Shown here: positions 8,665 to 56,900 of the stretch, piece after piece | Position numbering within the stretch: the stretch's first letter is position 1 | How the letters are laid out: the number at the start of each line of letters is the position of its first letter | Assembly: GCA_944470555.2 (NCBI GenBank) | Contig: OX104129.1 | Span: 83,784,820-83,848,819, forward strand | Direction of reading: 5' to 3' | DNA from: Heterobilharzia americana | Lineage: Eukaryota > Platyhelminthes > Trematoda > Strigeidida > Schistosomatidae | Length of the DNA: 64,000 nt | Notes under the pieces: generated by a model | What the model was told of the DNA's origin: nothing | Database searches by the model: none | What the model saw: the letters and a program-made list of their open reading frames with translations, nothing else | Translations under genes and position numbers: made by a program

Positions 8665-8850
8665 TGATGGGCAGTGGCTAGCAGTGGAATTCAGGATGCG
8701 CATTTCATCCTACTTGGGACTCGTCAGCTGGTTGTACCTGCTTCCCAGTGAGTGATGTTGTTCCCACCGGGACTCGGACTCGGGAGCGGTCGCTTCAAAC
8801 GCCAGCGCGTTGTCTACTACACCACCGAGCCACGGTAGCCACTTCTTGTA
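8665..8850 (-). mobile_element. SINE with hammerhead (type A)
   Basis: tRNA-like head (TGGCTCGGTGGTGTAGTAGA; GAGTCCGAGTCC) and hammerhead with CTGACGA at 8721-8727, GAAA, and cleavage triplet ATC at 8695-8697. Helix I is intact (CCAG with CTGA/ATTCC, one change). The pair closing helix II next to GAAA is G-U rather than G-C, so cleavage may be slower. Confidence 0.75.
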
Positions 8851-9494: not shown

Positions 9495-9785
9495 TATATG
9501 ATACCGTCGTTGATTGGACCGAATTGATCAGTCTGTATTGGTATGTGAGCTCCTGTTCGGATGCCTCGACATTGCCAGCAATCTAATTATGTTAATGATG
9601 GATCGTGGCTAGCAGTGGAATCCAGGATGCACATTTTGTCCTACTTGGGACTCGTCAGCTGGATGTACCTGCCTCCCAGTAAGTGATGTTGTTCCCACCG
9701 GGACTCGGACTCGGGAGCGATCGCTTCAAACGCCAGCACGTTATCCACTACATCACGGAGCCACGATAGCCATTTCTTGTGCGAA
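9495..9785 (-). mobile_element. Long SINE copy with inactivated hammerhead (type A)
   Basis: Contains the tRNA-like head, the hammerhead block and a longer 3' tail (shared with 11205-11330 and 33190-33310). CTGACGA is intact, but GACGAAAC has become GACAAAAT, losing the essential G of GAAA. Confidence 0.75.
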
Positions 9786-9895
9786 CAACATCACTCACTG
9801 GGAAGCAGGTACATCCAGCTAACGAGTCCCAAATAGGATGAAATGCGCATCCTGGATTCCACTGCTATCCACGATTCATCATTAGCAAATGCCTA
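9786..9895 (+). mobile_element. Partial SINE in opposite orientation (type A)
   Basis: Begins with CAACATCACTCACTGGGA and runs through the hammerhead in plus orientation. The core reads CTAACGA, with the catalytic G changed to A. Joined head-to-head with the copy at 9495-9785. Confidence 0.75.
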
Positions 9896-12489: not shown

Positions 12490-12650
12490 GAGTAACACTA
12501 AATACCTGGAAGTACTGGACAGATGTTTCGTCGTAGTGTGGGACTCCTCAGCAGTGCCAACTCATGACACCTCCAGAGATCGAACCCAGGACCTTCTGCT
12601 TCCATGGCCAATAGGTTGCCATTGAACCACCGGGTAGGAACCCAATGATC
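12490..12650 (-). mobile_element. SINE with intact hammerhead core (type B)
   Basis: Minus strand: CTGAGGA (12545-12551), helix II GTC/GAC with a 9-nt loop, GAAAC, a minimal helix III and GTC at 12518-12520. Helix I pairs ACTG with CAGT. Downstream on the plus strand lies a B-box-like block (GATCGAACCCAGG, read in reverse). The most complete type B ribozyme here. Confidence 0.75.
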
Positions 12651-32334: not shown

Positions 32335-32771
32335 ATAAACAGTAGTAGTAGTGGTAGTATTGGTTGTAGTAGTGGAGTGAGTAGTAGTAGTAGTAGTGTG
32401 AGTAGTAATAGTGGTGGTAGTAGTGTGAGTAGTAGTAGTAGTAGTAGTGGAGTGAGTAGTAGTAGCGGTGGTGTGAGTAGTAATAGTAGTGTGAGTAGTA
32501 GTATCGGTAGTAGTAGCGGAGTGAGTGGTAGTAGTACTAGTAGTGGTATTGGTAGTAGTAGTGGAGTGAGTAGTAATAGTAGTGGTAGTAGTGTGAGTAG
32601 TAGTAGTAGTAGTAGTGTGAGTAGTAATAGTAGTGGTAGTAGTGTGAGTAGTAGTAGTGTTGGTAGTAGTAGTAGCGGAGTGAGTAGTATCAGTAGTGGT
32701 GGTAGTAATAGTAGTAGTAGCGGAGTGAGTAGTAGTAGTACTAGTAGTGGTAGTAATGATAATAATAATAA

Positions 32772-32803
<32 letters not shown>

Positions 32804-32820
32804 ATAGTGTGCTAGCATAA
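32335..32820. repeat. Imperfect (AGT)n trinucleotide repeat
   Basis: About 485 bp of AGT units with GGT, GAG and AAT variants. It keeps a Ser/Gly frame open on plus (32314-32820), which I do not treat as a gene. On the minus strand it begins 13 nt beyond the LIN9 stop, so it probably lies in the LIN9 3' UTR or just past it. Confidence 0.95.
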
Positions 32821-32832
32821 GTAATATCTTTT

Positions 32833-32947
32833 TTACAAGTATTGAAAATGATTTGGATGAGTGTACAAAAAGGAATTCAAATTACTCATTGTACATAAAC
32901 CGCTGAGAGTATGATGCATTGAAATTTCTATACTATTTTCAAATGCT
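32833..32947 (-). CDS. lin9: lin9 exon 12 (C-terminus and stop)
   Basis: 115 nt: one base completes the split Gln, then 37 codons and TAA. Contains AFENSIEISMHHTLSGLCTM and SNLNSFL, which align with the C-terminal family segment QNNVEIHVAHIQSGLSQMGNL. The acceptor follows a T/C-rich tract (ATACTTTCAG). It lies 5.7 kb from exon 11, across Penelope and CR1-like debris. The stop is 13 nt from an (ACT)n tract in the presumed 3' UTR. Confidence 0.88.
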
Positions 32948-35900
32948 CTGAAAGTATAATTGAAGAAAAGAAAAGAGATTAAAAATCAGTTAATATTTGT
33001 TTTTAACTACTCCTTAACACCATCATATACTTTCAAGGTCATGAAATATTTTCCCAATTCCTCCTCCCAAAAGAACATGAATAGTTAGGGAAATATTCAT
33101 ATTATGTATAGTAATGATGGGCAGTGTCTAACAGTGGAATCCAAGGTGCGCATTTCGTCCTATTTGGGACTCATCAGCTGCTACTCACTATCCATCATTA
33201 CTACCATTAGAGCACCGGTAATATCAAGGCATCCGCACATGAACCTATATACTAACAGAGACTGATCAATGCAGTCCAATCAATGACAATGTCATAATTC
33301 CATATTAGATTTGTTTGTTTGATTGATAACACACAGTAAGTGATACAGTATTATTTACTTAATGACGACGTTATGAATACTACTTATCACTGCTTATAGT
33401 CATATCAATGTGTAATCATACAGCACTTTCAATAGTTGATTCTATATAGTTATATCCCTTTATATGAGTGTTGTTTTTATTGGTAGCAAAATTTTCCATA
33501 TCTCTGGTGTAGGTGTTGCATCATTTCTATTACACATGTGTTGGTTGGATGTTGATTCGATGAATAAAGATTCACTCATCAATCTCTTCCTTTCACTCCA
33601 CCTAATTATATTGAACTTGAGTACAGTGGTACTATCCCGCTTCACCCTATTGTGCGATTGTGTGTGTTAATGTATGCATTGCCAGAGTTGGAGTCATTTT
33701 TTCTAGATTATTGATTTCGTTGGGTTCTATCATCCCAGATTTAGCTGATTCCGATCGGTTAGTTTGACCTATGTACTTGATTAGGTCATTTTGATTAATT
33801 GGTTCTATCGGATCCTTAAGACAACCGATAGAGGTTATCATTTCTTTGTCCAGTGTTTTATACGTTGTACTCAGTTCCTCTTTTCGTTGTTCTCATCTCT
33901 CCACCACACTGGTTTATCTTCTGCTTTACCATCTCCCTCTCTTCTATCAGCTTCCATATGTCTATCGAGATCCATTCCTTGTTTTGTCTTGTTTCCTCTT
34001 CCTTTGTAATACGGTTTTTTTTCCACATGTCGTTCAGTGTCAGATACTCGAAGTCAACAATTGATCCTAATATTCTGTCAAAGTGCCACTGCACACACTA
34101 ATATAGATGTAAAACTTCGGCACTGTAGTAGAATTTAATTCCATATTAGATTTGTTTATTTGATTCATAACCCAGAGTGATACAGTATGATGTATATGAT
34201 GACGTTCCAAGCATAAATTATCATCGCTCATCACCATATCAATGTAATCATACACCACTCTCGACATCTGATTTCCATAGTCCTGTCACCTCACAATCTT
34301 TCGTTTTATTGGTGACAAAATTCTCCGTATCTCTGGTATATATGTTGCGACATTCCTGTTACATGTCTTCCACGGGCGTCGATTCGATGAACAAAGATTC
34401 AGTGATCAATCTTTTACTCTTACTCCACCTAATTATATTGCACTGAAGTACAGTGGTTTCACACACCACCCTATTGTGCTGTAGTGTGTTAATGCAGGCA
34501 TAGCAATAGCCGAGTGCTTTCCTACATTATTGATCTTATTTAGGTCTGTTACTTTATATTTAGCTAAATTCCCATTTTCGGCTATTCTAACTGACCCCGA
34601 TCAACTAGTTTGACCTATGTACTTGACCCCACTCACAGTCATTACATGGAATTTAATAGATTAGATTATTTTGCATAAGCCGACAAAAATTATCTCTAAG
34701 TGAGTTTGTAGGTCTTCGAATGCCACCCTAATTTCAGCTCTGTTGAGGATTCTACGTAAAGTTTCTGAGGTACCTTCCTTATAGGGTAACATAATGGAGG
34801 CTATGTACTCCATTTTTCTCGTGTTGTCGTTACTAGACGCACTTATGTGATTATTATTTTTCCATTTTTTCTGTGTCTATAAGAATTTTTTTAATAAACT
34901 GCGGAGGATGATTATTAACTATTAGCGCTTCTTTTACGGGTTTCAATTCCTTGTTTAGGTTCTTGCTATGACTAGTCAGTTTTCTAGCTGTATCATTTAG
35001 ACATTTGATTGATCCTGCCTTAACTGACTGACATTGGATGGGATGATCTGAAGTCTAGATACCTGTTACAGTGTGTCAGTATCTCGTAGACAGTAGTACC
35101 GAAGCCACCATCTGTTCTTCGTTTTATTCTGCAATCTAACATAGGTAATTCTCCTTGTTCATTTTCTAGCTCCTCGTTAGTGAATTGGGTTGCGCCTACT
35201 ACGAGTTTATATGTGTGAGGAAATTGTCGATATGTTCCGATTTCAACGCAGTAGTGAATGTGTCATCCACATATTGCCACCATATTTTTGGTGTAGCACT
35301 AAACGTTTGTAAAGCCATGTTTTCCCAACTATCCATAAATATATCTGCTACTATTGGGGATATTGGCGATCCCATTGCTACTCCTTCTGTTTGTCTGTAT
35401 ATTTTATTCTAAAACTTGAGTTTGACTAATATTGAGTTCAAGATCCCTCATAATTAGTTATCCAATGACTAACTGAAGTTCAAAAATAGCAAGCCTGAGA
35501 AAACGAGACAGGTTCTTGACCTAAGTCTCGGGGATGCATTGACGAGATTTTCACCCTCCTACAGATTCTGGAACACAGACACATTTGCCATATTTCTTGA
35601 CCTGAGGGTGGTGTTTGACTCAGTCGATTATGAGGTGTTGTGACAGTCTCTGATTGTGAAGCGAATACCTAGGAAGTATATATACCGGTAATTGAACCCC
35701 TCTACTCGAACTCATGCAGTCGTGTCACCCACTTATGGAGAGTTGTTATCTAAATTGACGACAACTAGTTTGTGATGTCAGCCAATGATGCCCACTAGTT
35801 ACCGTTCCAAATTAACTTCATCATAGATGCAGTTCACCTAGTTGACTTGGAATATGAAGACCATATTGTCCTGAAAGGTGAAAAAGCTAACAAAATGTAA

Positions 35901-38900
35901 GGTTTTCTGGACATGTTAACCAGAGCTCTGAGTATGTTTGGCATATGTTTTGCTGTTACCTGTCAAATGTCACATGATGCTAAAGGACTGGTCTGCGACC
36001 ACTTCCAACCTTATTGATAGGGAGTGAAATGGTGGCATGTGTCGACTACTTCACTTACTTACTTGAGAGCTACATCAATCCGAACAGGCTGGTTGCTGAC
36101 GAAATCTGAGCTCAAATGAAAAAGGCACAATTGGCATTTGTCAACTTACGTTACCTGTGGCGTCGGCAAGACATTCGGACGAGTATACTACGCTGCCATT
36201 CCTTCTATCCTGTTGTATAGATATGAGACATGCCCGTTAAAAGAGATATGCAGCGAATACAGCGTTCCGACTATGGATGTCTCCTTAGTATTGCTTGCGT
36301 TGCTGGAATCACTGTAAAAGCAATGTTCAGGTCAGACGAAGTGTACTAGACAAGACAGGCGAGTCGATTGATAAGGTTGTGAACCTTAATTGACTGAGAT
36401 AGCTTGGACATGTACTGTGCATGCCGAACCACTCCCTACCTAGATGTCTCATCCTACGGAAAGTTGGATTAGGTTAAAAGAGGGTTCAGTGTCGTCAGAC
36501 CAAGACGTAACACCAGTCGATGAAGTCTCTGAATGTTGGTCTGAGTTGTATAGAGAGACATGGAGTGCCAACGTAAAGTCCTGGAGACGAAAGGGATTAC
36601 AGTAGTTGAAGACTCTTGGTGACATGGCGGAAGATCGGTCACAATGGTGCTCGAATATTCGCAACAACTATTGTCTTCAGATTATTATTCTCTTGCACTC
36701 CTTTTCCATCACCTGTTCTTTGAGTACTACTAATGTGAAGGGAGGCAACTTGAGTCGATTTTGTCAGTTAGTCAGGGGGCGTAAACCAATCGGAATGCAG
36801 TCAGTAGGCTTGTATGCATTTGCGCAGCGATGAGGGTTAATAACACTACTTGACAGGCTGCTCAAACCTCGGTAGGTAGATCGGTGTTTCAACTTGTGAC
36901 TCATAGCTCCACTGAACAACGAGTTGCTTCAACTACATATTAATGAGGAAGGCAACTGTGTAAAAAGTTCTATTGCTTACAACTCTACCACAGTATTTAT
37001 CGTTATAAATAATGATTCAAAACAGGAGAGCGATTTCATTGGTGCTAATTTTTGTTGCTTACTTCATACTCGTCATTTCCAAGGCCATATTTGTGCTAAC
37101 TGGTGACCTCCAGTTAGTGTCGTTTTGTGTGTGCTTTATTGCTTCATATCAAATGTAAAACAAGAGAGAAGGTTGTAAACAAAACGATAAGGATTGTAAC
37201 TACTCACAATGTATGTGTTTGCAACGAACTGGGGCACAACCTTGTCAATCATTCGGGGAAAAAATTGAAGTGCTAATGTGTTTAAAAGGGGGTTAGGGTA
37301 GTTAATCCAATTTACACGTATCTAATAGTCTAGTATAGTTAATGAAGACTGAATCAATCAACCAATCAATATCAACATAGGATCAGGCATTACTGCGTAA
37401 CACTCCGAGTTGCCACACCTCATCTCATATCAGTACACATCAAGTAGAAAGGCAGTGAGGTGAAGGATGAAGATAAGAGAATGCAGTCAAAAGAAATATA
37501 AAATACGAGAAGAAAGAGAAGAGGAATGACAAAATGGTGAGATTCAGTATAGCGTGGTTAAGATGAGGATAATGTGTGTGGGCATATATCTGCATCACTG
37601 ACATCCGTTCTCAACCATGTCATCACCTAGAGTCAGTCTCCAACCACTGGTTCCTCTTGTCCCGTTGACCCCAACCACCTAGTCTGTATCGCCCCATATG
37701 GCTCAAACCAACAGTTGAACACTTCATACATTGGTGCCATGTTTTAGTCTGGCCACCTCGGACCTTTTTCCAACCTGGACTCACCTCAGCCAACATTGTG
37801 TGACGAGGTAATCGGCTACTAGACACACGTAGCACATGTCGAACGTGACCATCTCAGTCGATGAAGGTTCATAACCTCGTCTACTGATTTACCTCTACTC
37901 CCTAAAACTCTATCTATACCTTACTTCTGCATTACTCATGCGGTGACACCAAGGAATACGGCCACCTATACTACGAAGGTAACGGTGGTCAAACACTTGA
38001 AGGCAGCCTTATCATGTCTTCCACTTTCAATGGCCATGTTTCACAGCCATACAGTAGAACAGAGTGGACTGCTGTGCAGTACATGCGACCCTTAATCGAC
38101 AATCGGATATCACGGCAGTCCCATAGGTGGCGTAAATTGGCCAAAGCCAATCGAGCCATTTGTATCCGTGCCGAAATCTCATCGGCAACTAACCCACCAG
38201 GGTTGATCCTACTTCCCAGGTAAGTGAAGTGGTCAACACACTCAACCACTTCACTCTCTATTGTTAGCCGCGGCACCGCTGAAGATCAGTCCTGGAGGAA
38301 AAATTTGCATTTAGGTGGTGAGAAACGCATCTCAAACCTTTTCAAACTGCCACTCAAAGTGTTCAGAAGACTCTGAATCTTATCAGCGTCTTCACTTAAC
38401 AGGACTATGTCATCTGCATACTCTAGGTCTAACGAAAATTCTCATGTGATTAGGTCAACATCTGTGTAATTAGGTGACGACAGGGAGACCTCCATAAGTA
38501 TGTCCATGATAAAATTAAATGAGAATGGAGATAGTGAGCATCCTTGATGGACACTATTCGATGAGTATACCTCCCTAATGAAGATTGAATAGGGTTATAG
38601 GAATTGCATTCATATATTATTTTATTACTATATCATATTGTATATTTATGCATAACTTACTGAATATTGCTGGAATGAATACTCGACTTCAATTCACGTA
38701 AAGATTCTTGTATACTTGAACAATCATAGGTGGATTCTTCATTTTCACTTAGAGAACGAATTTGTACAAGTAAACTAATAAGTTTAGTGATCAAATCGAC
38801 TGTCTTTAGATTGCGAAACTTTTGAGCCTGTAATAAGAAAAAAATATTTTTAGAACAAAAATTTAAGGATAATGTAACACGAAAGTATAATATATCATCG

Positions 38901-41900
38901 AACTATGAAGGTATTGTGTATACAGATATATACACCAACTGTTGGAAACATTTGAAATCAACTGCTTAAGACACTGAACGAAACATACTCAACAAGCCAC
39001 GGCTAGTGATCTACCTGGCTGGCCAAACTTCAATATGTGGAGCGGGGTTCGAACTCATGACTCATTGGTTGATTATCATCTCCCTTAACTACAGTAAGTC
39101 GCAACTCCCCTCCAAGACTCTAGGGGGAGATCATTCCAATTCCTCTCCATCACCGTGACCATCTGTCGAAGTTTGTACCATCACAAAATTGATGTTACTT
39201 GAATTGGTGATCTCTTATGCTGTACTGATGTGCACACTTTCATTGCTCTGTGGACGTAATTGTGAAACTAGTAAAACGTACTCAAATATTTATTGTAGTA
39301 ATATTTCTTAATAAAATGATCTAAGAAGGACTTGATTCCCAGATTAATTTTCGTATTGATGAGTGGTGGTGGGGTTATGCTGCTTGAAACTAACAGGACA
39401 TTTGAGTTACAGCAGAATTTGAAGTAGTAACCATCAGAATACCAACTATGCATGCTCTGCCTGTTAAGCTAAGATGTTCTGTTACAAAACATTATGCCTC
39501 AATTTCGATGTTCACTTTAAAAGTTGCGAAGTGGTTGAGTGCCTGGGAAGCAGGATCAGCCGTACCTTGGTGGTTCAGTTGCCGATGAAATCTCTGCACG
39601 GATACAAATGGCTCGATTGGCTTTGGCCAATTTACCCCACCTATGGGACTGCCGTGATATCCAATTGTCGATTAAGGGTCGCATGTACTGCACAGCAGTC
39701 CACTCTCTTCTACTGTATGGCTGTGAAACATGGCCATTGAAAGTGGAAGACATGATAAGGCTGCCTTCAAGTGTTTGACCACCGTTACCTTCGTAGTATA
39801 GGTGGCCGTATTCCTTGGTGTCACCGCATGAGTAATGCAGAAGTAAGGTATAGATAGAGTTTTAGGGAGTAGAGGTAAATCAGTAGACGAGGTTATGAAC
39901 CTTCATCGACTGAGATGGTCACGTTCGACATGTGCTACGTGTGTCTAGTAGCCGATTACCTCGTCACACAATGTTGGCTGAGGTGAGTCCAGGTTGGAAA
40001 AAGGTCCGAGGTGGCCAGACTAAAACATGGCACCAATGTATGAAGTGTTCAACTGTTGGTTTGAGCCATATGGGGCGATACAGACTAGGTGGTTGGGGTC
40101 AACGGGACAAGAGGAACCAGTGGTTGGAGACTGACTCTAGGTGATGACATGGCTGAGAAGCGATGTCAGTGGTGCAGATGTATGCCCACACACATTATCC
40201 TCATCTTAACCATGCTATACCGAATCTCACTATTTTGTCATTTCTCTTTTCTTTCTTCTCGTATTTTATATTTCTTTTGACTGCATTCTCTTATCTTTAT
40301 CCTTTACCTCACTGCCTTTCTACTTGATGTGTACTGATATGAGATGAGGTGTGGCAACTCGGAGTGTTACGCAGTAATGCCTGATCCTATGTTGATAATG
40401 ATGATGATTTTGAAATTCTAGGAGAACATCTTAATCCTTTTTTTAAACAGATTGAAACTATATGTTCCCTTGTTTTACTTTATTTCAAAGTGGTATGCAT
40501 CATGAAATGACGTTAATTTGACGCGAACTAAAAACAAAAGTTGGGAGCATTGGATAGTCGTTTTGCTCGCAGTATTGGAACTCTTCACAACGAAGCACAT
40601 GATTGCCCTATCTAGTTTTCGGTGGCTTTTTCAAATGATGTCGGATTATGATGCATAATCACTTTGTAAGCAATCAACTAATCAGTTACCAAAGACCACT
40701 ATGGGATACTTCTAAAAAATTGTAGTTTTTCTTGGCCTTAATGGATGAGTCTACGATTCAAATTTCACACCGGCTACTTCGGATTGTGTAGTCGCATATT
40801 GGTGTTGATTGACATCAACTGGTCCAGTGCAAAACTGTGCCAATGAACTCGGTAAACGTACATACATACACACACACATACATACATACATACATACATA
40901 CATACATACATACATACATACATACATACATACATACATACATACATACATACATACATACATACATACATACATACATACATACATACACACATACATA
41001 CATACACACATACATACATACATACATACACACATACACACATACATACACACATACATACATACATACATACATACATACATACATACACACATACACA
41101 CATACATACACACATACATACATACATACATACATACATACATACATACATACATACATACATACATACATACATACATACATACATACATACATACATA
41201 CATACATACATACATACATACATACATACATACATACATACATACATACATACATACATACATACATACATACATACATACATACATACATACATACATA
41301 CATACATACATACATACATACATACATACATACATACATACATACATACATACATACATACATACATACATACATACATACATACATACATACATACATA
41401 CATACATACATACATACATACATACATACATACATACATACATACATACATACATACATACATACATACATACATACATACATACATACATACATACATA
41501 CATACATACATACCATATATACCATACCATACATACCATACCATACATAGCATACCATACATACGTGCCATACATACCATACCATACCATAGATACATAC
41601 ATACACGTCCATGTAGTAGGCAATGAGTTATACCTATTGTTGTATGAAGGATAATGATATTACCTGATCACTTACACTTCGGTCGAAAGTCAAGTACCTA
41701 GATTGATGAGTCAAAAACTATTCAACAGGCATATATATATATAGACACTAGACTTTAACTCACCTGCATACTTTTAATTCGTGTAACAATTTCATAGGCA
41801 TCTTCATCACAACGCTGTTTGAAATCAGCTGCTTGTTCCAATGGTGCTACACCATGTTCTTGTGCAATCTAATAAACAAAAGAAATATGCATAGATAGGA

Positions 41901-44900
41901 TACTTGGATAAAATACAACAGATAAGAATGGTAAAAGATAACGTTTATCTTATTGAAGATAAGAAAAACTATCTAATGAATTATTAACTCAATTCTCTCT
42001 ACTCCGCAAAGTCCATTCAACTTTTCATGAAGTAGAGAATACTAATGTGTCAATAGGGAACAGTTTCAAACATGTTTATAAACCAGAAGATATAAAGTAT
42101 AACTGTTAGATGAATATACAATTTGAAAAATCTAGTCAGTGGTTGAGTAATGAATTATAGATTTTCGATAGCGTAATTAGAAGATGAAGTTTATCTGAAC
42201 AATGTGGGTGATGTATTTGCACAATACAACATTTCCAACAATCTGCTCGATCAAACATTTACTTGTCTCAAGTCAATATACCTTAAACCGAGGACTGGAG
42301 GGAAAGGGGGAAAAATAAAACAATAATTAACACAACAGAGGATTAAAATTAAGAAAGATGAGGACAAACAGGAAGTGATATAGTTGATCCTAATGTTGGT
42401 AAGAAAACAAATTTTACCAAGGGGTAGGTGTAGTGAAAGAACAAACTGTTTTTCTACATATTAAGGTGGTTTACATTTATGTATGGCTATGGCTTCCACA
42501 AATCTTAGAATACATCCCTGACTGACTGTTTCTATAAAGAACTTTGAAAGCTGTTTGAACGTTAATTCTGCGACCTGTTTCTATGACATGTTTAGCCATA
42601 GATAAAGAGAGTCTTCTCCCACCAGCGTTTATTACTGTTTCACACTCCATTTGTTGTCGAAGCCATTTAGGCACATGTTCTACCACCACCAACTGCATTG
42701 CCCAATTTCTCCTCCCTCATGTATGTGTGACCACACACACATGTAAATTGGTAAACACAATGGGATGTGACGTAATCACTGATGTAGTGTGTAGGTTTTC
42801 GGTGAAGTATGTGTTTTGTTTCTTCCACAATGGTAAGATTTGCCGCGTAATATGTTTTCCTAATTGGGTCATGTCAGTCTGCGTCTCAAAATGATACTAT
42901 TTAACTCCCTCCTGTATAGTGGAGTGACATGGACGCTTTTCTTAGGGACCGCGTATAGAGTTGCCTTTGGTGCTACTTGACCTCTACGATGGTTTATAAA
43001 CTTCGTCGGATATCCATTTTCCATGAGTGCTTTGCTCAGTAATTTGATGTCTTCATTCATCGCATCTGGTGTACTGATACAATAGATCCTATTAAACAGG
43101 CATTTTATTAGACCTCGCTTGTATTGGATTGGACAAAAACTGTGAAAATTCAGGTGTTGTCCTATCCATGTAGGCTTTCTGTAAACTGACCGTCTTATTG
43201 AACCATCTTCTAATCGACTCGGAAGTATATCTAGGAATGGCAGTTGATCATTATTCTCTTTCTCACAAGTCAGGCGGATGTGTGTTTGTACGGCGTTGTC
43301 TATTCAGTAGACAAGCCATATCCTCATGCGTCTCACAAATCACTATGATATCATCAACATATCTCTTGTAAAGAGGAAGTTTAGCGATGAGAACACCAGC
43401 CAGATTTTCGATATATAACATATAAATATCAGCTAGTAGTGGTCCTAATGGACTACCCATAGCTACACCGTCAACTTGTCGAAAGTGTTCACCTTCAAAT
43501 GTGTGGTGGACTTTGTCGGTACACAACAATAATAACGATTAGCGTTCTGTGTGACTACATATCTCCTAGAAACCTCCCATTTCCTATTACTCCAGCCTTT
43601 TTGAAGGAGTTACTTGAATTTTCACAGTTTTTGTCCAATCCAATACAAGCGAGGTCTAATAAAATGCCTGTTTAATAGGATCTATTGTATCAGTACACCA
43701 GATGCGATGAATGAAGACATCAAATTACTGAGCAAAGCACTCATGGAAAATGGATATCCGACGAAGTTTATAAACCATCATAGAGGTCAAGTAGCACCAA
43801 AGGCAACTCTATACGCGGTCCCTAAGAAAAGCGTCCATGTCACTCCACTATACAGGAGGGAGTTAAATAGTATCATTTTGAGACGCAGACTGACATGACC
43901 CAATTAGGAAAACATATTACGCGGCAAATCTTACCATTGTGGAAGAAACAAAACACATACTTCACCGAAAACCTACACACTACATCAGTGATTACGTCAC
44001 ATCCCATTGTGTTTACCAATTTACATGTGTGTGTGGTCACACATACATGAGGGAGGAGAAATTGGGCAATGCAGTTGGTGGTGGTAGAACATGTGCCTAA
44101 ATGGCTTCGACAACAAATGGAGTGTGAAACAGTGATAAACGCAACGGCAGAATTACCACTGAACACAGGCACTCCGACAAAAGTAGAAGTCCTGAATGCC
44201 ACAAAACTGCAGAAATTAGGGAAAGCAGCAAGACCAGATGGAATTCCTCCAGAAGCACTGAAAACAGACGCAGAGACAACAGCGGACATACCCACACCAC
44301 TATTGCATAAGGTTAGGAAGGAAGGAAAGGTACCTGGACATTGGAAGCAGGGCTGCCTTGTCTAACTTTCAAAGAGGGGAGACCTAAGTCTCTGCAAGAA
44401 CTGGTGAGAAATCATGCTGCACCCATGTCCACCCTAAGTAAAATATTATGCCGCATCATACTGGAGAGACTAAACAATGCTCTGCACTCAAAATTACGAC
44501 TGAAACAGGCTGGCTGACTTCAAGAAGAACAAATCATGTGCGGACCAAATCGCAACGCTACTCTACGCATCATCATAGAACAGAGTATAGAATGGCAGTC
44601 AACTCAACTCCATCTCAACTTCATCGACTTTGAAAAGATCTTTGACAGCGTCAACCGAGAAGTAATTTGGCAGACAGTTGCTTCAACACTACGGAATACC
44701 ACAAACTTTTATCAATCCCATTCAACAACTAGATGAAGACGCCACATGTCAAGTAATTCACAATGGGAAGAAAGTTCAGTGATCCCTTTGAAGTGAAGAC
44801 AGGAAGGAGTAAGACAAGGCTATCTACTATCATCCATGAATATTACTGATTGTGGCCGACTGGATCATGCAGCAAACAGTGAGGAGCGAGAAGATGGGCA

Positions 44901-47900
44901 TAGGCTGGCTGGACCGATGAGAAGACCCTAGAAGATTTGGGTTTTGCCGATGACTTATGTTTAGTGTCGTGCAAACTCGAAGACGTATAGGCAAAATGCA
45001 ACAAATTGAAAGAAGAGGTGAGGCAGCGAAAACGGGACTTCAAGTGAATGTAAAGAAGACAGAAGTAGAGGTGATGAGGATACCCAACCAACATCACCAC
45101 CAACAACAACAAGCTCCAATCACCATTAACGGGAGAAACCTAAAGGAAGTAGTCTCTTTCACCTACCTAGGCGGCATCGTTACAACTACAGGCGGCACAG
45201 GCAGAGATGATGACCTCAAAACCAGGATCGGAGAAGCAATACAGGTTTTCATTATTCTGAAATCAGTGTGATCTACTGCACTCACCATAAACAACAACAT
45301 CCGGGTTTTCAACACCAACGTCAGTCAAGTCTGTGCCGCTATGTGATGGTTCAGAAACTTGGCACTTCACGAAAAGCATTTCCAACAAACTATAGATATT
45401 CATCAACAACTGCCGCCTACGCTCGCCCCATATTGACACTGAAGATCAGATGGCCAGAATAATAAGAATAAGCAACAAGGAGCTGTGGCAGTAACGAAAC
45501 AACAAGAGAACCTATCACCCAACAAATATGCAGAGTAAAATCCAAAGGGGAAACGATGATTTGGACATCCGAGACGACGGTGAGGAGATTGTGTAAGGAA
45601 GAAATGAAAGCTTGTGGCGCCAAGTTGAGAAGACTGCAGAGAATAGAGTGTGCAATGGAGGCGTACTACTGAAGCCCTATGTTTCAGTAGGAACCCCAAG
45701 GGAAAAATATTAATAATAATAATAATAATAATAATAACAACAACAACTAGATGATGAACCAAAGAAAAACACACATAATAAACAACTTTTAAAAATACAT
45801 TTAATTAGGCTTACTTCATTAGCATACTGTAGTACATGAACCAAGTATTGATTTAATTCCTTGTTAAGGCGTTCCAAGTGCATAACTAATGTGAGATAAG
45901 TGTGTTGAAACTCTAAGGATAATTCAGCTTTGTTTGAAATCTATATTCAAAGTAAGGCATATCTATACTACTAACCTTTCTTTCAGCTTCATCATTCAAA
46001 TCTTGTAGTTCATCAACACAACGCTTTTTAACTTCTAAGATTTTTGACAGTTTTGTCTGTAAAAATAAAAGTAATTTTAATGAAAATTATTAAAAAAAAA
46101 AAAGAGATTTTACTTATCATATGAAATTTAACATAGAGTAGTTGTACTGGACGATAAAACATTCATGTGAAAATCTGTAGCTAGCTGGATGTAAATGTTC
46201 GGTTTTATTTACCCAATGGATTGGTGGAGGTGTTGTTCCCTGGCTTGGGGAGTTGATTTTCAATCAGTCGGTCATGGCTTTGAGCCTCACCACATCTACC
46301 GAGGTTCAGGTATTATTATTATTATTTGTCCCTTAGGTTCCTAGTCGAACATAGGGCTTCCGTAGCACGTCTCCACTCCACTCCACTCCACTCTCTTCTC
46401 TGAAATCTTTTCAACCTGACTCCACGACTGCCTACAACCTCTCATTTCTTTCTCACGCCATCTCCTCCATGTCATTCTCACCTCGGATGACCAACTCATC
46501 GTTTCCAATCTGCGTTCCACTCAATGGCCTGCCTTGGCACATCATGTCCCTGAATGGTCTTCTCAGTGTATGCCCAGTCCAATCCATCTCCACTTCCTTC
46601 CAATGCATATTTGTTCAGCCATAGGTTCTTGGTTAGTTCGTTTCCAGAGTTCCTCGTTGCTTATTCGTATTACTCTGGCCATCTGAGTTTCAGTATCAGT
46701 ATCGAGCCAGCGTCGGTGGTGGCAGTTGTTGATGAATGTCTGTAGTTTGTAAAGTGGAGGATACAAAAAAGGCTTAAGGTGTTTGACCACCGTTGCCTTC
46801 GTAGTATAGGCCGCCGTATTCCGTGGTGTCACCATGTGAGTAATGCAGAAGTTAGGTGTAGAGTTTTGGGGAGAAGAGGTAAATCAGTTGACAAGGTTGT
46901 GAACCTTCATCGACTGAGATGGTTGGGACACGTACTGCGTATGCCTAGTCACCGACTGCCTCGTCACACAATGTTGGCTGAGGTGGGTCCAGACTGGAAA
47001 AAGGTCCGAGGTGGCCAGACTAAAACATGGCACCAATGTATGAAGTCTCTGACTGTTGGTTTAAGCCATGTGGAGCAATACAGACTAGGTGGTTGGGGTC
47101 CACGGGATAAGAGGAACCGGTGGTTGGAGACCCTAGGTGATATGGCTCAGAACCGAAGTCAGTGGCGCAGACGTATACACACATTATCCTCATCTTAACA
47201 ACGCTATACCGAATCTCACCATTTTGTCACTCCTCTTTCCTTTCTTCTCGTACTTTATATTTCTTTTGACTGCATTCTCTTATCTTCATCCTTCGCCTCA
47301 CTACCTTTTACTTGACGTGCTGATATGAGGTGTGGCAACTCGGACCGTTACGCAGTAATGCCTGATCCTATGTTGATAATGATGATGATGTCTGTAGTTT
47401 GTTGGAAATCCCTTTCGTAATGCGCCAAGTCTCCGAACTATACAAAAGTACTGACTTCATGTTGGTGTTGAAAATCCAGATCCTCTTCTTTATGCTGAGT
47501 GGAGTGCAGAAGATCTCCACACTGCTTTCAGGTTAATGAAAGCCTCTCTGGCTTTTCTGATCCTGGCTGGTTTTGACATCCTCGTCTGTGCCGCTGCCGC
47601 GTGTAGTTGAAACAGTGCTGCCCAGATAGGTGGGTAGGTGAAAGAGGCTACTTCGTTTAAGTTTCTCCCGTTGATGGCGATTGGAACTTGTTGTTGTTGG
47701 TGGTGGTGTTGGTGTTGGTTGGACATCTTCATCACTTATACCTCTGTCTTCTCTATATTCACTTGAAATCTCGTTTTCGCTGCCTCACCTCTTCTTTCAA
47801 TTTGTTGCATTTTGCCTATACATCTTCGAGTTTGCGCGACACTTAACATAAGTCATCGGCAAAACCCAAATCTTCTAGGGTCTTCTCATCGGTCCAGCCA

Positions 47901-50900: not shown

Positions 50901-53900
50901 CAGTGTGTCGTGTTCCATGGCCAGTTAACACTGACCCACCAAACGAAGCGGAGGTCAATAAGGAACCCCAAGGCAGCCAGCCCAGACAACTTACTCCATG
51001 GCTGAATGAGTGTTCCAGCACTCGGAAATGAAGTCATTATTGTACCCATCTTTAAAAAAGGTCGACGCAATGTAGGTGACAACCATCAGGGCATTAGTCT
51101 GTCACAGTCACATCGAAAATATTGGCTGTCGTCATACTTTGTAGACGTGCGAAAATGATTCGTGAGGAGCAAGTCGAGTTCCGTTCCGGTTATGGATACG
51201 TTGACCATGTGTTTACTCTCCGCTAGATGCTTGAACATTGGCAGACGTATTGTAGACCAAAGGCCGTTGTGTTTCTTGACATTAGGGTTGCCTTTGATTC
51301 GTTGTACTGTGACAGTGTCTATTAGAGAGGGGCGTACCTAAGGAATTTCTCAACATCTTGAAAGCCCTATATAATAACGCCTCAGGTAGAGTGACGGCAT
51401 ACAACCACCTGTCTCCATTGTTCAGAACCAGCAGTAAGGTTATGCAGGGTTGCCCGATTTCTCCATTCGTCTTTAACTTTACCATCGAAGATATTCTTGA
51501 GACAGCTCTAGAAGAAGTGCGTGATGATGGTGTAGATCTAAAACCCGAAGAACGGCTATTCGACCTTGAATATGCGGATGATATCGTCTTACTGTGTGAT
51601 AACATAAAGGCTACTCAAGTCACACTTAATCAGTGATTTGGACCATTGAAGTGAAAAATATTTTTCTAAGTTTAGCAGGAGCCTGTGCTTGCACTCACCC
51701 TTGGTGGTGAGCCATTGGGAAAGTGGGAAAGTTCGTGTATCTGGGTAGTTTTGTGAATCCTGGTGGGGGTGTGTGATGAAATTTCCAAACACATATCGAA
51801 GGCATACGTCAATCTGGGCCACCTTTGGCGCCATCGCGACGTTAGTCTGGTCGTAAAAAGTTGGGTTTATAACCCTTCGGTGAGAGCAATTCTGCTCTAC
51901 GCCTGTAAAACTTGGCCTCTTCCTGCTGAGGGTGACCGATAGCTCTGTGTGTTCGATCATTGTTATGGCCGTAGAATAGCTCGTATCCAGTGGCATCACT
52001 GTGTAAGTAATCCTAAGGTACGACAGTGTACGTTTAGGTATGATGGAGATCATCATTCAATAAGTGAAGTCATTTGGAAACAGCGGCTTCGATGGGGATG
52101 TCGTCCCAACGGCTTCTTGTGAATGGATGAAAAAAGTGGATAGGTTGTCAGTTTATAACATGGTGCCGTGGGATGAAGGATAGTTGTATCGGGAGAGCAT
52201 CTGTCAGTGCACCACGACTCTCTGGGTGAGGTCCGAGAGTTCACGCAGCTGAGTAGCTTGAGACGTTATCAGATATGGTTCACAACAGAAACTAGTGGTG
52301 GTCATGCTGTAGCTTCTATCTTCTGCTGCTGAAAAGCAATGAACATTTTGTTTGGAATGTACCTTACTGAATTTCCCTTCCAATCACGGAATTGTTTTCC
52401 TTTCTTACTTATCCATTTCTCATAGTTGATGCCTTGACATTGTTGTTACACTAATTTAGGTGATGCATTTCTTGGTGTCCTTTTTCTACCATGTCTTTAT
52501 TTTAATATTTACGATTACTATTTGTCCCTTAGGTTCCTAGTCGAACATAGGGCTTCCGTAGCACGTCTCCACTCCACTCCACTCCACTCTCTTCTCTGAA
52601 ATCTTTTCAACCTGACTCCACGACTGCTTACAACCTCTCATTTCTTTCTCATACCATCTCCTCCATGTCATTCTCACCTCGGACGACCAACTCATCGTTT
52701 CCCATCTGGGTTCCACTCGACGGCCTGCCTTGGCACATCATGTCCCTGAATGATCTTCTCAGTGTATGCCCAGTCCAATCCATCTCCACTTCCTTCCAAT
52801 GCATATTTGTTCAGCCATAGGTTCTTGGTTAGTTCGTTTCCAGAGTTCCTCGTTGCTTATTCGTATTACTCTGGCCATCTGAGTTTCAGTATCAGTATCG
52901 AGCCAGCGTCGGTGGTGGCAGTTGTTGATGAATGTCTGTAGTTTGTAAAGTGGAGGATACAAAAAAGGCTTAAGGTGTTTGACCACCGTTGCCTTCGTAG
53001 TATAGGCCGCCGTATTCCGTGGTGTCACCATGTGAGTAATGCAGAAGTTAGGTGTAGAGTTTTGGGGAGAAGAGGTAAATCAGTTGACGAGGTTGTGAAC
53101 CTTCATCGACTGAGATGGTTGGGACACGTACTGCGTATGCCTAGTCACCGACTGCCTCGTCACACAATGTTGGCTGAGGTGGGTCCAGACTGGAAAAAGG
53201 TCCGAGGTGGCCAGACTAAAACATGGCACCAATGTATGAAGTCTCTGACTGTTGGTTTAAGCCATGTGGAGCAATACAGACTAGGTGGTTGGGGTCCACG
53301 GGATAAGAGGAACCGGTGGTTGGAGACCCTAGGTGATATGGCTCAGAACCGAAGTCAGTGGCGCAGACGTATACACACATTATCCTCATCTTAACAACGC
53401 TATACCGAATCTCACCATTTTGTCACTCCTCTTTCCTTTCTTCTCGTACTTTATATTTCTTTTGACTGCATTCTCTTATCTTCATCCTTCGCCTCACTAC
53501 CTTTTACTTGACGTGCTGATATGAGGTGTGGCAACTCGGACCGTTACGCAGTAATGCCTGATCCTATGTTGATAATGATGATGATGTCTGTAGTTTGTTG
53601 GAAATCCCTTTCGTAATGCGCCAAGTCTCCGAACTATACAAAAGTACTGACTTCATGTTGGTGTTGAAAATCCAGATCCTCTTCTTTATGCTGAGTGGAG
53701 TGCAGAAGATCTCCACACTGCTTTCAGGTTAATGAAAGCCTCTCTGGCTTTTCTGATCCTGGCTGGTTTTGACATCCTCGTCTGTGCCGCTGCCGCGTGT
53801 AGTTGAAACAGTGCTACCCAGATAGGTGGGTAGGTGAAAGAGGCTACTTCGTTTAAGTTTCTCCCGTTGGTGGCGAATAAGCATAAGCATCACGGAACTC

Positions 53901-56900
53901 TGGAAACGAACTAACCAAGAAGCTATCGCTGAACAAATATGCATTGGAAGGAAGTGGAGATGGATTGGACTAGGCATACACTGAGAAGATCATTCAGGGA
54001 CATGATGCGCCAAGGCAGGCCGTTGAGTGGAACCCAGATGGAAAACGATGAGTTGGTCGTCCGAGGTGAGAATGACATGGAGGAGATGGTATGAGAAAGA
54101 AATGAGAGGTTGTAGGCAGTCGTGGAGTCAGGTTGAAAAGATTTCAGAGAAGAGAGTGGAGTGGAGTGGAGACGTGCTACGGAAGCCCTATGTTCGACTA
54201 GGAACCTAAGGGACAAATAATAATAATAATGATAATAATCTTTGTGTACTACTGTAAAGTGTGGCAAATTGAACCGATGCAACTGTCCGTGAGATTTTTC
54301 TGTAAACAAATACACCCATAACAGCTAGCGTATCTCATATAAAATTAGATAATGCTGGTTGTAAACAGAATGATACGTGATATAAGTATGAAATATCATA
54401 TTCAATGGTCTATAAGGTCTAAAGGTAATGGCGATCGAAAAAAAGTGTTTAAATGAAAACGTGGCTCCAGACTTTGAATTCAGTGTGCGCCATACTGAGT
54501 CGTAGACTACTGAGATGCTAAGAGGTGCAATTCGAAAGTCAGCAGTAACACTCTAACTTCATTTCGTTTACTTAAAACTTGGTTTTTCCTTTCATTATTT
54601 AACATTTATCTCTTTTTTATATATGTCTATTTCATTTTTCCACACAATTAAAAGTGTACACTCACCAGTGGTTGGAGTTCTTAATACAAACAACATTGAT
54701 CACGGTGAAGTAGGTATGCGCACGTCTGATTTCCTACTCCAGTTTCAGAAATCTTGTCATCATGTCTTCGACTCCCTATTATTTTTATTCATGATTACTT
54801 TAATAACAGACGACATCATTATTAGTATTCATTTACCCTCTCACTTGCTCATCTGCTTTAACTGTCTATATTGATAGTTGGAGTCCGCGGGACAAGAGGA
54901 ACCAGTAGTTGATGACTCTAGCTGATGACATGGCTCAGAACCGATGTCAGTGGTGCAGATGTATCCCCATAGACATTATCCTCATCTTAACCACGCTATA
55001 CCGAATCTCACCATTTTCTCATTCTTCCTTTCTCCCTTTTCGTACTTTATACTTCTTTTGACTGAAGTTTTTTATCTTCATCTTTCTACATCACTATCTT
55101 TCTACTTGATGTGTACTGATATGAGGTGTGGCAACTCGAACCGTTACGCAGTAATGCCTGTTGATATTGATGATGACGATTGATGTGTAATGCAAAGATT
55201 AGGCTCGATACCCAAAAACACAATGTCTCGTCATTTATTCACATCAATTTGTAAACTTGTGAGAAAAGTTGGTTGTTGCATACACTAAAGTTCTCTTATA
55301 AACAGGGTTGAACTCAAAAATCAGTACCAAAATTACTGACTCTGTGGGATAGACATAAGAGTATAATAAAGAAGTATAATAACTGATTAAGAATTAAGTG
55401 ATTACAATAATGTAACTGAACCATATTTAAATCAAATGAAAAGGGGTGATTAATTGTTAAACCAACTAGTTACCTGTAGAGCGGATTGAGCCAATAGTCG
55501 AGCTGGACTCATAAAAAGATTACGGCTGGCTTTATGTTGAGTTTTATATGCAGACAAAGGAATAGTTTCTTGTGGTAAAATACTTAAAACTTCATAGTCA
55601 GGTATTGATCGAGTGCCAAGAGCTGGTTTATCGAATGTTACTCGATAACAATGTCTGAGAGCGTCAATAGCATCGACTTTCCCAGTGTATAAACCATCAG
55701 TTGGATAACGAACTCTGTAATTCATTTAAATTAAATAAATACTGAGAATTACAAGAAAGTTTAACATATTTTAACGGAAAAATCCCAAAACATATTGAAA
55801 ATATGCTTTAAGGGTTAGTTCTTTGATAAGATGATGCTTTAAGTGAATTATTCAGATATATATATATATATCAACCACATTCATGTGTGCTGTAGGCAAT
55901 TAGCCATATATTGTGTGACCATTAATGATATAACGTGGCCATCAAAATTTTGGCAGACAGACAGACAGATAAAATCAACGTAGGATCTGGTATCAGTGAG
56001 TAATGATCCAAGCTGCCACACTTCGTAGCACTACATCAGTCAACCAATCAATCAATCAATATCAACATAGGAACAGGCATTATACTGCGTAACACTCCGA
56101 GTTGCCACACCTCATCTCATATCAGTACACATCAAGTAGAAATGCAGTGAGGTAAAGGATAAAGATAAGAGAATGCAGTCAAAAGAAATATAAAATACGA
56201 GAAGAAAGAGAAGAGGAATAACAAAATGGTGAGATTCAGTATAGCATGGTTAAGATGAGAATAATGTGTGTGGGCATACATCTGCACCACTGACATCCGT
56301 TCTCAGCCATGTCACCACCTATAGTCAGTCTCCAACCACTGGTTCCTCTTGTCCCACCGACCCCAACCACCTAGTCTGTATTGCTCCACATGGCTTAAAC
56401 CAACAGTCAGAGACTTCATACATTGGTGCCATGTTTTAGTCTGGCCACCTCGGGCCTTTTTCTAGTCTGGACCTACTTCAGCCAACATTGTGTGACGAGG
56501 CAGTCGGCGACTAGGCATACGCAGTACGTGTCCCAACCATTTCAACCGATGAAGGTTTATAACCTCGTCAACCAAGCACCAAGATAAAAGAAATCATCAA
56601 AAACCAGTCAGATAAGCGACCGCTTCACGTGGCTTATTGGCCTACGAGCTTGACATCTAAATAATGAATCATATGGTTCAAATCCTACTACATATACATT
56701 TTGACCTAGACACAAATTAGTTCTCAGCTTAGTATTTATACACATAGAATTTCTCAGTTACAGTAGTCAGAATTTAAGCCTGTTATTATAGTTGATTGTT
56801 ATTTGTTCTAATATACTACGCCGGGATTATACAAGTAAAAATACACCTTATACAGTGATTACCTTAATGCCTAATACACCAGTACTATTTAGAGCTTTCA

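What the first reader, a model, noticed from the sequence alone, without database searches (positions are those of the whole stretch)
37374..40396. Near-identical inverted CR1-like copies bracket LIN9 exon 11
Arms 37374-38262 and 39527-40396 (about 870 bp each) are inverted; a 70-codon stretch translates identically from both. They lie in introns 11 and 10, and exon 11 (38661-38827) sits in the 1.26-kb spacer. Paired intronic repeats of this sort promote back-splicing or exon skipping in other animals (human inverted Alus). Skipping exon 11 (167 nt) would shift the frame.
Basis: partly seen in the sequence, partly recalled or inferred. Interest (0 to 1): 0.75.

Follow-up and report, generated by a model that had tools for sequence, protein, structure and literature searches.

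The report
Inverted fossil retroelements flanking LIN9 exon
Two old, broken copies of a jumping gene lie in opposite directions on either side of one exon of the LIN9 gene in a dog-infecting blood fluke; they look alike probably because neighbouring copies have overwritten one another rather than because they are new, and such inverted pairs are common around this gene.

Summary
In detail: arms L (37365-38262, minus) and R (39528-40402, plus) are 96.7% identical over 861 nt, 1.3 kb apart, in the two introns flanking LIN9 exon 38661-38827. The genome is Heterobilharzia americana (contig lengths). The arms are degraded 3' ends of a non-LTR retrotransposon; RTE rather than CR1 looks likelier, untested by phylogeny.

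They do not look like two young insertions. Genome-wide, L's best match is R (97%); the next full-length copy scored is 87%. A central 445-nt block is 100% identical, next best 89%, while the outer parts differ at 23 sites. In the 3' part, R is as close to a copy 16 kb away as to L (95% each), then 93% at 57 kb and 91% at 122 kb. Best reading: two separate insertions homogenised by local gene conversion; short-read polishing could mimic the 100% block.

The transcript could fold into a hairpin looping out the exon. But 20 of 22 inverted alignments of 200 nt or more in 30-62 kb bracket an exon, 2 of 24 sampled 10-kb stretches hold inverted pairs of at least 500 nt and 95%, and no RNA data were available. 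Splicing effect: possible, unshown.

The parts
37355..38575 (-). Arm L and its longer 5' part: 5'-truncated non-LTR retrotransposon remnant (1221 nt); part homologous to R is 37365-38262
   Evidence: blastn; RT fragments PF00078 at 38289-38441 (29.5 bits, cut-off 29.6) and 38445-38594 (18.7 bits), DUF6451 at 37992-38285 (25.7 bits, cut-off 28); ends from the target-site duplication
37340..37354 (.). Outer target-site duplication of L (ATTCAGTCTTCATTA read on minus)
   Evidence: 15 nt, one mismatch; best of 200 random pairs 13 nt
38576..38590 (.). Inner target-site duplication of L (ATTCAATCTTCATTA read on minus)
39528..40410 (+). Arm R: 5'-truncated remnant of the same family, own TGATGATGATG tail; no target-site duplication found
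37615..38059 (-). L half of the 445-nt block identical in both arms
39708..40152 (+). R half of the 445-nt identical block
38661..38827 (-).
   Evidence: (PF19438)
41764..41868 (-).
32833..32947 (-). Last LIN9 coding exon with stop codon
31426..31842 (-). Partial copy c31, about 1 kb past the LIN9 stop codon; nearest relatives in the genome search are R and L
56042..56572 (-). Partial copy c56; mosaic, shares L/R private states in its 3' part only

Best explanation
Two independent, 5'-truncated insertions of an old, abundant non-LTR retrotransposon family (probably RTE clade) landed in opposite orientation in adjacent LIN9 introns, 3' ends outward. Afterwards ectopic gene conversion between them, and to a lesser degree with other copies in the same neighbourhood (c31, c56), overwrote parts of the arms; the latest tract covers at least 445 nt and left them 100% identical there. 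Shown here: the inverted arms, the block, the local kinship. Inferred: that conversion and not another copying process made it, and its recency. Consequence (inferred): the LIN9 pre-mRNA can form a roughly 850-bp hairpin with the exon in a 1.26-kb loop, which may give low-level skipping, back-splicing or A-to-I editing without being a dedicated regulatory device; in DNA, crossing-over between the arms would flip the exon.
For: Arms are each other's nearest kin: L's best match is R at 97%, the 38 other scored copies 83-87% (40 of 9472 candidates scored). Block alone: R 100%, the 38 others 86-89% (40 of 5316 scored). Differences are not spread evenly: 23 substitutions (and one 5-nt gap) in 857 columns, longest clean run 445, reached by 0 of 20000 permutations, whose largest was 375. 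Relations change along the arm: in the block (340-611) L-R 0/272, L-c31 12/271, L-c56 38/268; in the 3' part L-R 13/246, L-c56 10/246, R-c56 11/246; at 612-690 R-c31 3/79 against R-L 8/79. States shared by L and R and absent from 20 other copies: 4 of 144, 16 of 430, 3 of 239 sites from 5' to 3'; c31 shares 12 of the 14 it covers (11 of 13 in the block), c56 3 of 3 in the 3' part and 0 of 11 in the block. Kinship to R's 3' part falls with distance: 95% at 2.5 kb (L) and 16 kb (c56), 93% at 57 kb, 91% at 122 kb, then 90% or less (40 of 5286 scored). Separate insertions: different 5' ends, different tails, an own target-site duplication for L.
Against: R has no recognisable target-site duplication. 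Differing sites lie only in the outer 166 and 246 nt, which is also what short-read polishing of a repeat would leave. Outside the block the nearest relative is a tie between L, R and c56 and not a clean reversal. Local kinship in the outer parts could equally come from local re-insertion or an old local duplication; another pair about 32 kb apart on C2 is 95% alike over at least 2 kb without significant clustering of its differences (568 of 5000 permutations as extreme), which does not look like patchy conversion. The control direct duplication 46318-47680/52514-53876 also has clustered differences, so patchiness is not peculiar to this pair. A second copy from the sampled stretches had no local kin. 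Search lists score 40 candidates only and favour full-length copies; 'private' means absent from 20 fetched copies, not from the genome.
Confidence: 0.68

Rival explanations
1. One arm is an inverted duplicate of the other (replication template switch or fold-back copying), not a separate retrotransposition.
For: Arms are nearest kin by a wide margin; R has no target-site duplication.
Against: Homology stops at the element's 3' end in both; tails differ (TGATGATGATG in R, ATTGATTGGTTGATTG in L); L's duplication flanks the element; outer 3' parts are as close to c56 as to each other.
Confidence: 0.17
2. Two recent insertions from one young source element, no conversion.
For: 97% identity alone would suggest youth.
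Against: None of the 38 other copies scored is above 87%; differences clustered; both arms share 4-nt insertions at core 220-223 and 309-312 that 20 of 20 other copies lack.
Confidence: 0.04
3. The 100% block is an assembly or polishing artefact: the arms are real, but consensus calling erased differences in the middle.
For: Differing sites sit only near the unique flanks.
Against: Contig of 86.8 Mb and no N in the window; the direct repeat 46318/52514 keeps 13 differences; states private to L/R in the block are shared by c31, 11 of 13, so the block's sequence is a real local variant. No reads or assembly method could be checked (0 papers).
Confidence: 0.11
4. The pair is a functional device: its hairpin promotes a circular RNA of the exon or regulated skipping of it, lowering or truncating LIN9.
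For: Arms in both flanking introns, -1693 kcal/mol duplex; circRNAs are reported in Schistosoma japonicum (2636, passages of PMC13029200).
Against: No RNA evidence; 20 of 22 inverted alignments in 30-62 kb bracket exons; the exon is in the deposited protein.
Confidence: 0.15

Closest known systems
Gene conversion between neighbouring Alu elements in primates
   Same: Interspersed retroelement copies overwrite near neighbours, the more so the closer they lie (about 10 kb range, falling with distance, as a passage of PMC8230782 reports of its reference 8)
   Different: A flatworm non-LTR element; raised kinship reaches 57-122 kb here; patchy block in an inverted pair
Inverted Alu pairs flanking circularised exons
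   Same: Complementary repeats in both flanking introns close to the exon (principle from a passage of PMC13029200)
   Different: Arms about 860 nt instead of about 300 (Alu length recalled); no back-splice evidence; single 167-nt exon
SR2/SR3/Perere-3 RTE elements of Schistosoma mansoni
   Same: 5'-truncated copies in introns, short tandem 3' tails; SR3-like 5'-truncated copies sit in introns 1 and 6 of S. haematobium AChE (passages of PMC1291365)
   Different: SR3 tail is (TAAG)n, here TGATGA/TTGAT; clade not placed by phylogeny
Inversions between inverted repeats in human genes such as factor VIII introns 1 and 22 (recalled)
   Same: Inverted near-identical repeats that can recombine and flip what lies between
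   Different: Here no flip is seen: L's target-site duplications are in ancestral order

Membership tests
RTE-clade non-LTR retrotransposon | Reverse transcriptase domain | tested here: inconclusive
   PF00078 fragments 29.5 bits (cut-off 29.6) and 18.7 bits
RTE-clade non-LTR retrotransposon | Short 3' end with simple tandem repeats | tested here: met
   TGATGATGATG in R, c47, c53; ATTGATTG-type repeats in L, c56; feature as given in the abstract of PMC2887409 and passages of PMC1291365
RTE-clade non-LTR retrotransposon | RT phylogeny inside RTE | not tested
   No reference RTs of named clades at hand
CR1 clade | CR1-type 3' terminal repeat (octamer, recalled) | tested here: not met
   Tails seen are TGA/TTGAT repeats; the CR1 criterion is recalled
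CR1 clade | RT phylogeny inside CR1 | not tested
   As above
Gene-converted repeat pair | Tract of raised identity with sharp limits | tested here: met
   445 clean columns of 857, 0 of 20000 permutations; a direct duplication used as control is patchy too
Gene-converted repeat pair | Nearest relative differs between tract and outside | tested here: inconclusive
   Block: each arm's nearest is the other by far. 3' part: a tie of L, R and c56; at 612-690 R is nearer c31 (3/79) than L (8/79). L's own 3' part did not complete
circRNA-promoting intronic complementary pair | Complementary arms in both flanking introns | tested here: met
circRNA-promoting intronic complementary pair | Back-splice junction reads | not testable with these tools
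   No RNA data
LIN9 gene | DIRP and LIN9_C domains in the protein | tested here: met
   P0066 carries PF06584 and PF19438 (precomputed); exon 38661-38827 hits PF19438

The most novel reading that the evidence does not exclude
In this schistosomatid genome a LINE family of thousands of candidate copies evolves partly in concert by neighbourhood: copies within about 100 kb are more alike than unlinked copies because of ectopic conversion (or local re-insertion), so that introns keep regenerating near-identical inverted arms around exons, a standing source of dsRNA and of exon-flipping inversions.
Probability: 0.3. Interest if true: 0.5.

Novelty: new member of a known kind. Interest (0 to 1): 0.33.

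Why it matters
Identity between repeat arms is usually read as youth. Here it more likely reflects local overwriting, so the pair cannot be dated by divergence, and dsRNA-forming arms around exons may be maintained or renewed without new transposition. It also gives a clear, testable locus in a flatworm for three questions: does a long intronic hairpin cause circular RNA or skipping, is it edited, and do populations carry the flipped exon.

Tried and rejected
Youth of the pair (two recent insertions): held very unlikely on genome-wide identity. CR1 label: dropped for lack of support. Segmental duplication including flanks: not seen for L/R, c31 or c56, whose matches to the family end at or near element ends. 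Inversion of the spacer: L's target-site duplications are in ancestral order, so no odd number of flips within the arms since L inserted (inference). Uniqueness of the pair around this gene: rejected. Generality of local kinship: mixed. The L006 copy has its nearest relative about 32 kb away at 96%, next 88% (40 of 11612 scored); the L004 copy has none, nearest 79% on another contig (40 of 6196 scored); both were picked as long copies from the sampled stretches. L002 and the copy at 46745-47389 got no answer. Literature: nine searches. (H. americana, genome, PacBio) and one search gave 0 papers. Apart from the five papers cited, of which passages (PMC13029200, PMC8293314, PMC1291365, PMC8230782) or the abstract and outline (PMC2887409) were seen, only listings were seen.
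Full report
Where it is. The window is C3:83784820-83848819 of a 664,890,237-base genome in 337 contigs. Contigs C2 (79,544,659), C4 (85,565,828) and C3 (86,847,596), lengths, are the lengths given for contigs of Heterobilharzia americana, and the deposited LIN9 protein of that species (P0066, 615 aa) lies on a contig of 86,847,596 bases. So the window is from this dog schistosome. Six type I hammerhead ribozymes in the window fit a schistosomatid (recalled).

The gene. LIN9 is on the minus strand; nine exons were located with a recalled human sequence as a lead and six shown again with P0066. The exon of the finding, 38661-38827, scores 46.5 bits to Pfam LIN9_C, has a canonical acceptor and donor, starts in phase 0 and is 167 nt long. 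It is present in 30 of 34 homologues examined (P0066-P0099 of 120 listed; P0081 and P0083-P0085, 316-482 aa long, gave no match). The preceding exon is 41764-41868 and the following, last coding exon begins at 32947. Skipping would read SMQ-SI-stop, losing 93 of 615 residues; with the stop in the last coding exon, exon-junction NMD is not expected (established knowledge). That the exon is the eleventh was not checked.

The arms. L and R align at 96.7% over 861 nt; R's inner end is at about 39528, L's element runs further inward to 38575. L is framed by a 15-nt duplication with one mismatch, 38576-38590 and 37340-37354; the best of 200 random pairs was 13 nt. R has no such duplication above 7 nt. 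L's element ends 85 nt from the exon (its target-site duplication 70 nt), R begins about 700 nt from it. Reverse-transcriptase remnants are recognisable but broken. Of 65 protein relatives of one piece, those with a name are trematode (Heterobilharzia, Schistosoma, Opisthorchis, Clonorchis) but for one labelled Marinifilum breve; the best is H. americana at 91%.

Why the arms are alike. In the whole genome L's nearest relative is R (97%); the 38 other scored matches are 83-87%. With the central 445 nt alone, R is 100% and the 38 others 86-89%. The 23 substitutions between the arms fall at core positions 10-166 and 612-857; 0 of 20000 random placements gave a clean run as long. Against the 20 fetched other copies, the mean distance of each arm is about 10-14% in all three parts. 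States shared by L and R and absent from those 20 occur in all three parts (4 of 144, 16 of 430, 3 of 239), so there was older sharing too; 12 of the 14 that c31 covers are shared by c31, and 3 of 3 in the 3' part by c56 (0 of 11 in the block), copies lying about 6-8 kb and 16-18 kb away, c56 in an intron of the gene and c31 about 1 kb past its stop codon. For c31 the two nearest relatives are R and L (93%), the next 89% (40 of 6989 scored). For c56 they are L and R (90%) and a copy 138 kb away (89%), the next, 1.8 Mb away, also 89% (40 of 7755 scored): a narrow margin. For R's 3' part the order is L 95%, c56 95%, a copy 57 kb off 93%, one 122 kb off 91%, then 90% or less (40 of 5286 scored). 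By my own arithmetic, uniform placement would put a given copy within 122 kb with a probability of about 4 in 10,000, though copies are denser than that around here. A local process is therefore very likely; the block with sharp limits, the different tails and the different 5' ends speak for gene conversion between separate insertions.

What speaks against or is open. Conversion inferred from an assembly can be mimicked by polishing; no reads were available. The outer parts do not show a clean reversal of kinship but a tie between L, R and c56. A pair on C2 (L006/L046) is also local (about 32 kb) and stops at the element's 3' end, yet its differences are not significantly clustered (its 5' limit lies outside the fetched stretch), so local re-insertion or duplication may also operate. 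The L004 copy has no local kin. Of two copies from the sampled stretches that were answered, one shows the pattern.

How special is it. In 30-62 kb of the window 22 inverted alignments of at least 200 nt exist and 20 bracket an exon; they come from fewer elements and are not independent. Some lie as close: 54877-55184/56051-56367 (82%, spacer 867 nt) brackets another LIN9 exon. In 24 10-kb stretches taken at round coordinates on C1-C4, 8 hold an inverted pair of at least 200 nt and 2 one of at least 500 nt and 95%, both cut by the end of the stretch; one of these is a Penelope-like element by its reverse-transcriptase and GIY-YIG-like ORF (named from recall). The arms of the finding are the only one of the 22 alignments at 95% or more that brackets an exon.

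Function. The minus-strand transcript can pair the arms (854 pairs, -1693 kcal/mol). Circular RNAs occur in Schistosoma japonicum (2636, passages of the review PMC13029200), and inverted Alu repeats in flanking introns can promote them (same passages). No RNA evidence was available for this gene. I think it likeliest that the hairpin forms at some level and has little effect on LIN9, whose exon is included in the deposited protein.

Known kind. Gene conversion among neighbouring Alus, within about 10 kb and falling with distance, is described (passage of PMC8230782 about its reference 8). RTE elements with simple-repeat tails are described in Lepidoptera (abstract of PMC2887409) and schistosomes, where truncated copies in introns are also noted (passages of PMC1291365). 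TE-derived coding exons in S. mansoni genes are reviewed in PMC8293314 (passages). The finding is a member of known kinds; the part worth following is the neighbourhood-wide kinship of the copies.

Noticed in passing
42625-43155 / 43612-44142: Second near-identical inverted pair (99.4%, 531 nt, spacer 457 nt) within a single LIN9 intron; arms carry a shared open stretch.
   Followed up: partly
46318-47680 / 52514-53876: Direct duplication of 1363 nt at 99.0%; 10 of its 13 differences fall in the first 240 nt, so it too is patchy.
   Followed up: partly
40859-41605: 747-nt (TACA)n array in the intron between arm R and the preceding LIN9 exon.
   Followed up: no
32341-32808: 468-nt degenerate AGT triplet array directly downstream of the LIN9 stop codon.
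   Followed up: no
2784-2828, 8689-8732, 9620-9664, 9813-9857, 12512-12557, 33139-33182: Six type I hammerhead ribozymes above the Rfam gathering score.
   Followed up: no
L006:1925-3919 and L046:1-1980: Two copies of the same retroelement family about 32 kb apart on C2, 95% alike over at least 2 kb, match ending at the element's 3' end; next best copy 88%.
   Followed up: partly
L009:5467-6165/9302-10000 and L017:4924-6972/7950-10000: Near-identical (99.7% and 99.1%) inverted pairs in sampled 10-kb stretches, both running off the end of the stretch.
   Followed up: partly
39528-39560 against 38220-38262: R lacks about 18 nt present in L; the missing piece is one side of a small hairpin (AGTGGT...ACCACT), seen by eye.
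   Followed up: no
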